Below, piece by piece: positions 24,347-33,029 of a stretch of DNA of 37,970 nucleotides. The translations under genes were made by a program, and so were the position numbers. The notes beneath the pieces were generated by a model. It made no database searches. It saw nothing but the letters and a program-made list of their open reading frames with translations, and was not told where the DNA came from. Position 1 is the stretch's first letter; every line of letters begins with the position of its first letter. The DNA lies in the NCBI GenBank assembly GCA_020347665.1, contig CP070737.1:790707-828676 (forward strand). Direction: 5' to 3'. Source of the stretch: Nitrospiraceae bacterium (GTDB lineage Bacteria > Nitrospirota > Thermodesulfovibrionia > Thermodesulfovibrionales > UBA6898).

Positions 24347-25104
24347 TGCTGTATAGAACTGAAGGAATCGTATTAAAAACCAGCCTGTTTCATGAAGCAG
24401 ATCTTATCGTTACCTATCTGACAAAAGACTATGGTCTCTTAAAGGTTTTTGCGAAGAGCCCCCGGAAGATCAAGAGCAGATTCGGAAGCAGCCTTGAGCC
24501 GCTTACGCACTCACGGATCTCATTCTGGGGTAAACAGGATGCTGCTCTCCCAAGGCTTACCCAGGCTGACATTATTCATTCTTTCGAATCTCTGAGAAGC
24601 TCAATGCGGTCTTTTTTGATGATCTCGGAATTCATTGAGCTGACGATTAATTTTCTGGCTGAGCGTGATGTCAACCTGAGGGCATATAATCTTTTTATGT
24701 CAACAATGCATTCTCTGGAAAAAGATCACATAACAGACTTTATTGCTCTCTTCTATAAAATAAAATTTCTTGACATAGTGGGTTTTCTTCCCAAACTGGA
24801 TGCATGCGGCAGATGCGGTAAAGAAGGTGAAATATTTTATATTTCCCATGGAACAATTCTTTGTAAGATATGTTCCGGAGGAGCCCTATCATCTTTCAAA
24901 CTTTCAAAAGGCGCAATGAAATTTTATGCACATCTTCTCACGTGGGAATTACAATCCCTGAGCCGGCTGAAACCTGCAGAAGCGATGGTAGTTGAAATCT
25001 CATCGCTTATTGATGAACATATGAAGTATATACTTCAGAAGACATTCAGAACATCAACTTTTACCGTTCCTGATTCACTGAACAACCGGATGATATACTT
25101 ATGA
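24346..25104 (+). CDS. recO: DNA repair protein RecO
   Basis: It mediates RecA loading in the RecFOR pathway. An N-terminal OB fold opens with RTEGIVLKTSLFHEADLIV, followed by a helical domain. A zinc finger is built from C154, C157 (CGRC), C173 and C176 (CKIC). Length is 252 residues. It ends the long plus-strand run and overlaps the end of the convergent DksA-like gene by 6 nt. Confidence 0.94.
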   Translation: MLYRTEGIVLKTSLFHEADLIVTYLTKDYGLLKVFAKSPRKIKSRFGSSLEPLTHSRISFWGKQDAALPRLTQADIIHSFESLRSSMRSFLMISEFIELTINFLAERDVNLRAYNLFMSTMHSLEKDHITDFIALFYKIKFLDIVGFLPKLDACGRCGKEGEIFYISHGTILCKICSGGALSSFKLSKGAMKFYAHLLTWELQSLSRLKPAEAMVVEISSLIDEHMKYILQKTFRTSTFTVPDSLNNRMIYL

Positions 25105-25734
25105 TGCTCTCAGCTTTTCTTCTTCTTCCTGCAACGTTTTGCATTCGATGCACATCGTTGTAACGGGCCTGGCTTCAAGACGTTTCATGTCGATTTCTTT
25201 TCCGCAGTCATCACAAATACCAAACGAACCGGCATCGATTCGATCAATTGCCTCTTCTATTTTTTTCAATAATCTTTGTTCGCGGCCCCTCAAGCGTAAC
25301 ATGAAATTCCTGTCTGTCTCTGCCGAGGCCTGATCACCAAGATCAGGGAATATAGTTTGTCCGGGGAGCTCATTTAACGCAAGTTCTGCTTCATCGAGAA
25401 GAGAAGTCTTTTGTTTTAACAGATCCAGTTTAATGTTCTGTAATTTTTTCTCTCTGAGAGAAGCATGCTTCTTTGGTTTTGACTTGATACCCTTTTTCTT
25501 GGATACCTTTTTTGCCGCGACAACTTTTTCGGTCTTCAGCTTTCGGGATTTCAGTCCTGATGTTATACTTTTTGCCGTACGAGCAGTTTTTTTCTTCGTA
25601 GTACCTTTAGCTGGTTTTGCTTTCGCCTTTTTAACCGGAGATGCTAAAGACTTTCTTTTTGGAGTCTTCTTTTTGGAAGCTGGCGGAGCAGATTTCGTCT
25701 TTTTCCTGGTAGTCTTTTTTGCAGGTTTTCTCAT
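25099..25734 (-). CDS. DksA/TraR-type zinc-finger protein with a lysine/alanine-rich tail
   Basis: The protein has two halves. Residues 1 to about 95 are histone-H1-like, dominated by Lys, Ala, Pro, Ser and Thr (KKTTRKK, KKKTPKRK, KAKAKPAKG). Residues about 100-211 are a DksA/TraR module: a coiled coil, then a four-cysteine zinc finger with C174, C177, C195 and C198 (CDDC...CIEC). DksA-type proteins bind RNA polymerase in its secondary channel; the basic tail suggests DNA or RNA binding. The ATG at 25734 follows an AAGGAG site 11 nt upstream; an earlier in-frame start at 25794 has none. It has its own promoter. Confidence 0.85.
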   Translation of the reverse strand: MRKPAKKTTRKKTKSAPPASKKKTPKRKSLASPVKKAKAKPAKGTTKKKTARTAKSITSGLKSRKLKTEKVVAAKKVSKKKGIKSKPKKHASLREKKLQNIKLDLLKQKTSLLDEAELALNELPGQTIFPDLGDQASAETDRNFMLRLRGREQRLLKKIEEAIDRIDAGSFGICDDCGKEIDMKRLEARPVTTMCIECKTLQEEEEKLRAS

Positions 25735-25765
25735 GGTTATAATAACTCCTTTTTTAAATTCAGAT

Positions 25766-25794
25766 AGACTAACAAAATAGTGCAGTTTAGTCAA
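25766..25794 (-). promoter_or_regulatory. Promoter of the DksA-like gene
   Basis: On the minus strand, TTGACT (25794-25789) and TAGTCT (25771-25766) are separated by 17 nt. The start would lie about 25 nt before the ATG, just ahead of the AAGGAG site. Confidence 0.55.
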
Positions 25795-26385: not shown

Positions 26386-26575
26386 TGGGTTAGTTTACTT
26401 AAAAATTTCATAAAGATCAATTGACTGTTTTGATCCGGCATCGTACTGATGTTACGATATCTCGTATAGCGATGATGTAATAAGCGATGTTCATGATTTC
26501 TTCACAATTTGATAATACACTAGAAGGCACATAACTATAATAATCACCTTGCAATTCAGCGAAAGGAGATAAACA

Positions 26576-26983
26576 GTGCACGTGACTAAATATCTCATTG
26601 TATTAATGGTATCAGCGATTCTCTTGTCTGTGGGTTCAGTTGCAGATGCGGAAAAGAGCGCCACTGACAGATTTGACCAGTCGTTGAGAAAGGGCGAAGA
26701 AAGGAAAACGCTTGACCCCCAGATGTTCGAGAATGCGCTTATCAAAAAGGCATATCGTGCTGCAAAGGAAATTCCCTGGGTGCTTGACAGCATTTACTGT
26801 TATTGTTATTGCTCGGAATCTCCGACTTTTAGGCATAAAAGTCTGTTAAGTTGTTATGTAGACTTACATGCCGCACGGTGAGACATCTGTCTTAGGGAAG
26901 CCCTGCGGGCTTTCGAACTGTACCAGCAAGGGAATTCTGTAAAAACTATCAAAGAAATTGTGGAAAGAGAGTTTAAGCGTTAA
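26576..26983 (+). CDS. CYCXC-family selenoprotein (UGA read as selenocysteine at residue 102)
   Basis: The frame opens at a GTG, 7 nt after AGGAG, with a signal peptide (about 1-25, ending VADA). The CYCYC motif is at C75, C77 and C79, and C93 lies in the SLLSCYVD segment. At codon 102 (26879-26881) it meets TGA, but the same frame runs 33 further codons to a TAA. The extension reads UDIC, EALRAFELYQ and IKEIVEREF, the helix expected after the HAAxCxxC motif of this family. UGA therefore replaces the first Cys of CxxC (U102, C105). A SECIS-like hairpin follows. The full product is 135 residues, exported, probably metal-binding or redox-active. Ending at 26881 would give a truncated protein. 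No selABCD gene lies in the window. Confidence 0.85.
26897..26913 (+). promoter_or_regulatory. Bacterial SECIS-like hairpin downstream of the in-frame UGA
   Basis: AAGCCC (26898-26903) pairs perfectly with GGGCTT (26907-26912) around a TGC loop; a G-T pair at 26897/26913 can extend it. The loop begins 22 nt after the UGA and has G as its second base. Both agree with what is known of bacterial SECIS elements: an apical loop about 16-37 nt from UGA and a G in the first two loop positions. Confidence 0.72.
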
Positions 26984-32315: not shown

Positions 32316-32339
32316 CCTGCAGGAATATTGTTCTGCAGG
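32316..32339 (+). repeat. CCTGCAG hairpin after rlpA
   Basis: A perfect 7-bp inverted repeat (CCTGCAG, 32316-32322, with 32333-32339) encloses a 10-nt loop directly after the stop codon. No U-tract follows, so it is more likely an mRNA 3'-end stabiliser or Rho-linked site than an intrinsic terminator. Confidence 0.45.
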
Positions 32340-32414
32340 TGTACAGGTACTGCATCGCCCACTCTCATATGGCTTTATCTATTCAAAAAAAGTTTTTTTG
32401 TGTACAATTTCTAT

Positions 32415-33029
32415 ATGGAAACCTTTGAGAATGTTATAGAATTCCATGGACATGCATGTCCGGGTCTCGCCCTCGGATACAGGGTTGCCATGAGAGCACT
32501 GAAGGAGTTTGAAATCCCTGCTGCGGATGAGGAGATTGTTGCGCTCGTTGAGAATAATTCATGTGCGATTGATGCAGTGCAGGTAGTAACAGGATGCACA
32601 TTCGGAAAAGGGAATCTCATATTCCATGATTATGGAAAACAGGTCTACACATTCATAAAGCGTCCATCGGGAAAATATCTGAGGATATCTATTTGCTGGA
32701 AAAAACCTGCTGAGTCGGAGAATGAACGGCTGTTATGGGAAAAATATATGAAGGGTGACCGTTCAGAATCTGTTGTTGATTTTGTCCATGCAAGAAAGTC
32801 ATCGAAAATCAAGCATATCCTGACTGCTGATGAACGGGAGCTCATGACAGTTACCACGGGGACGATGAAGGTCCCCGATCCGGCGATAATTCGTCCATCC
32901 GTGGTTTGTTCATCGTGTCATGAAAAAGTGATGGATCTGAAAGCAATGCATAAAAACGGTTACCGGTTCTGTATCCCTTGTTTTAATGAGGAAGAATTGA
33001 GGAAGAAGCGTAAAAAACACGCAGAATGA
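32415..33029 (+). CDS. FmdE-family protein with C-terminal zinc finger
   Basis: It has the FmdE fold, named for a subunit of molybdenum formylmethanofuran dehydrogenase, but occurs in many bacteria without that pathway; its role is not known. HGHACPG (11-17) with C15, NNSCAIDA (C50) and GCTFGKGN (C61) are the family metal-site motifs. A TraR-like four-cysteine zinc finger (CSSC...CIPC) ends the 204-residue protein. I start at the ATG at 32415, where homology begins, although the frame is open from 32328. A TACAAT box ends 6 nt before it and no ribosome-binding site is seen. It overlaps argB by ATGA. Confidence 0.85.
   Translation: METFENVIEFHGHACPGLALGYRVAMRALKEFEIPAADEEIVALVENNSCAIDAVQVVTGCTFGKGNLIFHDYGKQVYTFIKRPSGKYLRISICWKKPAESENERLLWEKYMKGDRSESVVDFVHARKSSKIKHILTADERELMTVTTGTMKVPDPAIIRPSVVCSSCHEKVMDLKAMHKNGYRFCIPCFNEEELRKKRKKHAE

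What the first reader, a model, noticed from the sequence alone, without database searches (positions are those of the whole stretch)
26576..26983. Hidden selenoprotein: UGA at codon 102 decodes the first position of a CxxC redox pair
Seen: the frame of an exported CYCYC-motif protein meets TGA at 26879-26881, then stays open for 33 codons with UDIC, EALRAFELY and IKEIVEREF before a TAA. Known: proteins of the CYCXC/PCYCGC group carry HAxxCxxC followed by an amphipathic helix, and some members are described as selenoproteins. Inferred: Sec102 with Cys105 forms a UxxC redox site in a periplasmic protein. A standard gene caller would truncate it at 26881 and lose the redox motif and the C-terminal helix.
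Basis: partly seen in the sequence, partly recalled or inferred. Interest (0 to 1): 0.92.

Follow-up and report, generated by a model that had tools for sequence, protein, structure and literature searches.

The report
Selenocysteine protein of a known family

Summary
Confirmed. GTG 26576 to TAA 26981-26983 is one 135-codon gene with an in-frame UGA at codon 102. Read through, it matches NCBIfam NF041379 "CYCXC family (seleno)protein" at 119.9 bits (cut-off 90); cut at the UGA it gets 76.9. In the class, 77 of 83 matches over cut-off carry exactly one in-frame TGA. Of the best 80 related loci in named genomes, 58 read UxxC, 21 CxxC, one is ambiguous. A SECIS hairpin lies 14 nt after the UGA; a strict test finds such a hairpin in 26 of 29 window-type genes (window included) against 5.1% after synonymous-codon resampling. 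selA, selB and two selD are present; selC was not found, in an assembly with gaps. The family is in print as OS_HP4, UxxC: a new member of a known kind. New and tentative: the UxxC hairpin resembles that of the cytochrome c maturation protein CcmH (fold search not significant), and relatives neighbour cytochrome c assembly, TlpA-like or metal-efflux genes.

The parts
26562..26568 (+). AAAGGAG, likely ribosome-binding site 7 nt before the GTG start
   Evidence: read directly from the sequence; role inferred
26576..26983 (+). CYCXC/OS_HP4 selenoprotein gene, 135 codons plus TAA
   Evidence: NF041379 119.9 bits (cut-off 90), PF13798 47.6 bits (cut-off 25), Sec given to the programs as Cys
26576..26650 (+). 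N-terminal hydrophobic segment, read by eye as a signal peptide ending near ADA/EK
   Evidence: sequence; the model has a low-confidence helix at residues 4-19; no signal-peptide program was run
26798..26812 (+). CYCYC motif; C75, C77 and C79 invariant in 47 aligned sequences
26879..26881 (+). TGA, codon 102, read as selenocysteine (first residue of UxxC with Cys105)
26882..26980 (+). post-UGA coding part: Cys105, helix 103-117 and helix 122-133 in the model
26896..26914 (+). bacterial SECIS hairpin: 8 bp stem, loop UGC at 26904-26906, 22 nt between UGA and loop
   Evidence: fits the published model quoted in PMC13188914 (passages)

Best explanation
This is a genuine Sec-decoded gene of the CYCXC (OS_HP4) family in a bacterium of the phylum Nitrospirota (inferred from its named relatives). 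The UGA is read by SelB with Sec-tRNA because of the hairpin at 26896-26914. The product is an exported protein whose Sec102-x-x-Cys105 pair caps a two-helix hairpin, beside a CYCYC cluster, C93, H87 and H98. Most likely mechanism (inferred): UxxC is a fast periplasmic thiol/selenol exchange site, CcmH-like in form, that takes electrons from a TlpA/ResA-type thioredoxin and keeps thiols, or copper bound at the other Cys and His residues, reduced during cytochrome c assembly or copper handling. Odds: Sec decoding about 0.95; periplasmic dithiol/selenol exchange as the main chemistry about 0.5; CcmH-like ancestry about 0.35.
For: Sec decoding: family models; 77 of 83 over-cut-off matches in 230 class genomes have one in-frame TGA (tallied by hand from its table); 58 UxxC, 21 CxxC, 1 ambiguous of the best 80 loci; strict SECIS test passed by 26 of 29 window-type genes and 0 of 4 Cys genes; 99.6% of cells paired against 22-68% when one arm is slid; selA within 0.6 kb of selB, two selD; TGA is the stop of 6 of 11 neighbouring genes. 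Mechanism: AlphaFold model, mean pLDDT 82.2, residue 102 just before helix 103-117; local hhalign to 30 CcmH sequences, probability 80.5, CxxC on CxxC, against at most 14.9 for 15 control families; a paralogue in this genome that joins a CcmH domain and a CYCXC domain; TlpA/ResA-like neighbours in 21 of 80 loci and ResB in 9 of 21 Cys loci.
Against: No selC was found in this genome by Rfam, by a model from relatives or by a pattern. No protein evidence. The SECIS test fails for 3 of 29 window-type and 13 of 14 other Sec genes; the whole-stretch fold is not unusual against dinucleotide shuffles (z -1.04); covariation is thin. The PDB fold search gave nothing significant; CcmH 2kw0 is second of 13, E 3.3. 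The hhalign match covers 37 columns with a 13-residue gap, its E-value is for one comparison, and in global mode the probability is 14.0. The protein itself has no Pfam CcmH match. The recurrent neighbours of the relatives were not seen among the ORFs listed around the gene in this window, and the window-type relatives sit mostly with efflux genes rather than cytochrome c genes.
Confidence: 0.8

Rival explanations
1. A selenoprotein, but the conserved Cys/Sec/His set is chiefly a copper(I) or other soft-metal binding and hand-over site, with Sec as a metal ligand or as the metal-release switch rather than as a thioredoxin-type redox residue.
For: Window-type relatives sit with metal-efflux-type genes: outer-membrane efflux protein in 21 of 37, CusB-like adaptor in 18 of 37, YtkA-like protein in 19 of 37 loci. 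C75, C77, C79, C93, position 102, C105, H87 and H98 are invariant in 47 aligned sequences.
Against: None of these genes was seen among the ORFs listed around the gene in this window, and the genome has no heavy-metal RND pump over the TIGR00914 cut-off (best 277.6 against 701.45). The Cys forms sit with ResB, a cytochrome c assembly protein and TlpA-like genes instead.
Confidence: 0.35
2. The UGA is a true stop and the gene makes a 101-residue protein; the rest is a remnant.
For: The plain ORF stops there; selC was not found.
Against: Coding pattern and invariant residues continue after the UGA; the same TGA is kept in 58 of 80 loci; the hairpin is kept beyond what the protein requires.
Confidence: 0.03
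3. UGA is a sense codon for another amino acid throughout this genome (code change).
For: Nothing beyond the missing selC.
Against: Six of 11 neighbouring genes end in TGA; the search allowed C, U, S, T, A or G at this position and found only U (58) and C (21) in 79 of 80 loci.
Confidence: 0.01

Closest known systems
CYCXC family (seleno)protein, NCBIfam NF041379, OS_HP4 (source given in PMC13188914: Zhang and Gladyshev 2007, not held here)
   Same: Core matches over cut-off; Sec at the first position of UxxC; CYCXC motif
   Different: Nothing essential in the window gene. The same genome also has a UxxU copy, which the catalogue entry (UxxC, one Sec) does not list
Pfam PF13798 PCYCGC, unknown function, including a Bacillales lipoprotein (PMC13068155, passages)
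   Same: Over the gathering score (47.6 against 25)
   Different: CYCYC in place of PCYCGC, Sec in place of Cys, no lipobox Cys seen by eye
CcmH / NrfF (Pfam PF03918), CxxC protein of cytochrome c maturation (function recalled)
   Same: C/UxxC followed by a helix, a G-containing turn and a helix; local hhalign probability 80.5 over 37 columns; joined to a CYCXC domain in one paralogue
   Different: No direct Pfam match; about 13 fewer residues between CxxC and the turn; extra CYCYC cluster; fold match not significant

Membership tests
CYCXC family (seleno)protein NF041379 | Score over the curated cut-off | tested here: met
   119.9 bits against 90 with read-through; 76.9 without
CYCXC family (seleno)protein NF041379 | CYCXC motif and H[AG]xx[U/C]xxC | tested here: met
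   C75, C77, C79, H98, 102 and C105 present and invariant in 47 rows
Bacterial selenoprotein gene | In-frame UGA aligned with Cys in homologues | tested here: met
   58 UxxC, 21 CxxC and 1 with an ambiguous base at that codon, of the best 80 loci
[quoted passage not shown]
   Loop UGC, 8 bp, 22 nt, -10.4 kcal/mol for the hairpin alone; model quoted
Bacterial selenoprotein gene | selA, selB, selD in the genome | tested here: met
   all over cut-off
Bacterial selenoprotein gene | selC (tRNA-Sec) in the genome | tested here: inconclusive
   Not found; 20 of 27 genomes of the family have one over cut-off; assembly has N gaps
Bacterial selenoprotein gene | Selenium in the isolated protein | not testable with these tools
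   Needs protein
PF13798 PCYCGC | Score over the gathering cut-off | tested here: met
   47.6 bits against 25 with read-through, 25.7 without
CcmH PF03918 | Score over the gathering cut-off | tested here: not met
   No match at E up to 1; so it is not filed as a CcmH
CcmH PF03918 | CxxC helical fold | tested here: inconclusive
   hhalign local 80.5, global 14.0; Foldseek rank 2 of 13, E 3.3

The most novel reading that the evidence does not exclude
CYCXC proteins are a diverged, selenium-using branch of the CcmH-type thiol exchange fold that serves both cytochrome c assembly and copper handling. In this organism one paralogue has gone to a double-Sec UxxU centre in which a single SECIS hairpin (loop GGUC, 26 nt after the first and 17 nt after the second UGA) serves two UGA codons.
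Probability: 0.25. Interest if true: 0.5.

Novelty: new member of a known kind. Interest (0 to 1): 0.25.

Why it matters
A reading of raw sequence picked up a selenoprotein that a plain ORF list cuts short, and the synonymous-codon test shows that the SECIS is kept beyond what the protein needs. I found no stated function for the family in the papers that I could search; the resemblance to CcmH and the TlpA/ResA, ResB and efflux neighbours give testable ones. In a tree of 83 rows, one branch (99/91) parts the 60 Sec rows from the 23 Cys rows, so in this sample Sec and Cys changed once; which way is not known, as the root is not.

Tried and rejected
Truncated gene or pseudogene, and genome-wide code change: rejected (see rivals). 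selC: searched with Rfam RF01852, ARAGORN on chosen stretches only, all of Rfam on the selAB stretch, a model built from relatives' tRNA-Sec and a pattern for a long-armed tRNA with anticodon UCA. All ten hits and nine of ten are other tRNAs by ARAGORN; the tenth (E 3.87) is no tRNA gene by ARAGORN. Of the six pattern matches two lie in tRNA genes (Asp, Leu) and four gave no tRNA gene. Only 150 of 154 and 150 of 1397 first-look candidates were scored. N runs were looked for in the window and ten loci of this genome: the window and eight of the loci had none, L010 had 100 N and L220 two runs of 100.

Rfam gave no match around the gene. The whole-stretch fold was not unusual against dinucleotide shuffles (z -1.04, 27 of 200 as good); the synonymous-codon test is the control that I lean on. 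That strict test, which demands an unbroken stem and a loop G, fails for 3 of 29 window-type genes and 13 of 14 of the other Sec type, whose SECIS is unresolved. Covariation is thin: five of eight pairs never vary and one changes on both sides; 8 of 500 shuffles reach the observed percentage paired and covariation score, and all 500 reach its number of further pair types. The header printed says 1000 resamplings; 400 were run.

Rows outside the counts: of 48 family sequences scanned (47 loci and the window), L061 did not fit the search pattern, so 47 were used. I chose part of these loci by hand (the five without a TGA and the one with two among them), so their 42:4:1 ratio is no frequency. 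One search kept the best 80 of 141 relatives of a mostly Sec alignment, so 58:21 leans towards Sec. L130 has an ambiguous base at the Sec codon and is not in the tree. One search used wrong coordinates for minus-strand rows and was replaced. The CcmH part of the script failed because of too strict a pattern and was rerun. Neighbour families were named from one representative each, loci are cut at contig ends, and the longest-ORF gene finding is crude.

Full report
Observation. The window holds a GTG-started frame at 26576 with AAAGGAG seven bases upstream, an in-frame TGA at codon 102 (26879-26881), 33 more codons and a TAA at 26981-26983. The plain ORF list ends the gene at the TGA.

What it is. 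Read through (Sec given as Cys), the 135-residue product scores 119.9 bits against NCBIfam NF041379, 'CYCXC family (seleno)protein' (cut-off 90), and 47.6 bits against Pfam PF13798 PCYCGC (cut-off 25). Cut at the TGA it gets 76.9, below the first cut-off, and 25.7, just over the second. The window lies in a 2.25 Mb genome, G000. The nearest named relatives are genomes, mostly metagenome-assembled, labelled Nitrospirota or Nitrospirae, several of them Thermodesulfovibrionia or Thermodesulfovibrionales.

Homologues. Among 230 genomes of the class, 85 have a match to the family. Of 83 matches over the cut-off in the table (my tally), 77 have exactly one in-frame TGA, five have none and one has two. 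A separate scan of one genome per species gave 141 confirmed relatives, of which the best 80 were kept: 58 read UxxC, 21 CxxC, and one (L130) has an ambiguous base at that codon. In 47 aligned sequences, window included (42 UxxC, 4 CxxC, 1 UxxU, partly chosen by hand), columns Y60, A63, C75, C77, C79, H87, L90, C93, H98, 102, C105, A109 and L115 are invariant with Sec read as Cys. In 29 window-type sequences the variation after the UGA falls on third codon positions (0.081/0.073/0.327) as before it, and is unstructured beyond the gene. A tree of 83 rows puts all 60 Sec rows on one side of one branch (99/91), with two supported Sec clades: 37 rows with the window, and 22 of a type whose N-terminus reads by eye as a membrane anchor. 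It rests on few columns, so many forks are open, and the root is unknown.

SECIS. Positions 26896-26914 form an 8 bp stem with loop UGC, 22 nt after the UGA, -10.4 kcal/mol. This meets the constraints for bacterial SECIS elements given in PMC13188914 (passages). A strict test found such a hairpin in 26 of 29 window-type genes (window included), against a mean of 5.1% when their codons were resampled synonymously 400 times each; none of the 400 resamplings of the window gene was as stable. It passed in 1 of 14 genes of the other Sec type and 0 of 4 Cys genes. On 28 distinct sequences 99.6% of cells pair, against 22-68% when one arm is slid by 1-3 columns; five of eight pairs never vary, one changes on both sides, and 8 of 500 shuffles reach the observed percentage paired. 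Against that, the fold of the whole 55-nt stretch is not unusual among dinucleotide shuffles (z -1.04).

Machinery. selA and selB lie within 0.6 kb of each other, and two selD genes, each with an in-frame TGA of its own, are over cut-off. No tRNA-Sec was found. PMC8124441 (passages) reports selC partly overlapping selB in a groundwater lineage of Nitrospirae; the selAB stretch here gave no tRNA to ARAGORN or Rfam. Twenty of 27 genomes of the family, this one included among the 27, have a tRNA-Sec over the Rfam cut-off, and ARAGORN names it tRNA-SeC(tca) in all 12 loci fetched. The assembly has runs of 100 N and an estimated completeness of 91%, so a gap is the simplest reason. Six of 11 neighbouring genes in the window end in TGA, which speaks against a general code change.

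Structure and mechanism. The AlphaFold model (47-row alignment, mean pLDDT 82.2, low in the first 40 residues) places residue 102 just before helix 103-117, followed by helix 122-133. Foldseek against the PDB gave no significant match; the second of 13 is the CcmH N-terminal domain 2kw0 (E 3.3, probability 0.23, the highest of the list). No PDB chain matched the family profile by sequence at E up to 1. A paralogue in this genome, L056, has a cytochrome c domain, a CcmH domain and a PCYCGC domain in one chain, each over its Pfam cut-off; against NF041379 its whole protein gets 89.4, just under 90, or 93.1. hhalign of the CYCXC core against CcmH sequences (30 found in 34 loci) gave probability 80.5 in local mode over 37 columns with CxxC aligned on CxxC and a 13-residue gap, and 14.0 in global mode. 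Fifteen neighbour-gene families as controls gave at most 14.9 in local mode, the best being a thioredoxin-like set. This is suggestive, not proof.

Context. In the 80 loci (37 window-type, 21 other Sec type, 21 Cys, 1 ambiguous), window-type genes neighbour outer-membrane efflux proteins (21 of 37), CusB-like adaptors (18 of 37) and YtkA-like proteins (19 of 37). Cys genes neighbour ResB (9 of 21) and a cytochrome c assembly protein (8 of 21). A TlpA/ResA-like thioredoxin is near 21 of 80 (8 Cys, 8 other Sec, 5 window-type). Other recurrent neighbours fit neither reading: two families that I read by eye as a sensor kinase (17 of 80) and a response regulator (16 of 80), a short protein without a Pfam or NCBIfam match (14 of 80), and next to Cys genes several families that I read by eye as Rnf subunits (up to 10 of 21). 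In this genome the Cys paralogue in L054 stands near a cytochrome c assembly gene and an ORF with a weak, below-cut-off AhpC-TSA match, in a stretch that reads by eye as a Ccm cluster. The window copy lies between genes that I read by eye as RecO, TrmFO, XerC and HslVU (not tested) and PilZ and DksA-type genes, so its own partners are unknown. The genome has no heavy-metal RND pump over cut-off.

Known or new. PMC13188914 (passages) lists 'CYCXC family protein (hypothetical protein OS_HP4)', PF13798, UxxC, one Sec, with the 2007 Olavius symbiont paper as source; PMC9312934 (passages) lists OS_HP4 with UxxC. The 2007 paper is not held. In the held library, searches for CYCXC with selenoprotein, PCYCGC, PF13798 and OS_HP4 listed no paper whose title or abstract start gives the family a function; PMC13068155 (passages) says that its PCYCGC lipoprotein cannot be confidently assigned one. 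The gene is therefore a new member of a known kind.

Noticed in passing
L055:2262-2714 (G000 contig 1, about 1192261-1192713): A CYCXC paralogue with two in-frame UGAs, UxxU. The hairpin CCUAGC-GGUC-GCUAGG lies 26 nt after the first and 17 nt after the second UGA, so one SECIS could serve both. The only UxxU among the sequences that I read; a base error is not excluded.
   Followed up: partly
L056:2097-3014 (minus): One protein joining a cytochrome c domain, a CcmH domain and a CYCXC domain with Cys in place of Sec.
   Followed up: partly
L220:3612-4118: A protein over the Pfam CcmH cut-off in what reads as the Ccm cluster of this genome; by eye it lacks the usual LRCxxC motif.
   Followed up: no
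L010 and L011: Two selD genes, each with one in-frame TGA, so both SelD proteins may be selenoproteins.
   Followed up: no
G000 whole genome: No tRNA-Sec found although selA, selB and selD are there; the assembly has 100-N gaps.
   Followed up: partly
L097 near 1500 (minus) and L099: Stretches that look by eye like 3' ends of tRNAs without a complete gene, perhaps integration scars.
   Followed up: no
window 25099-25794 (minus): DksA/TraR-type zinc-finger protein with a long lysine- and alanine-rich N-terminal tail.
   Followed up: no
window 32328-33029: FmdE-family protein with a C-terminal part that weakly resembles a DksA/TraR zinc finger, below the Pfam cut-off.
   Followed up: no
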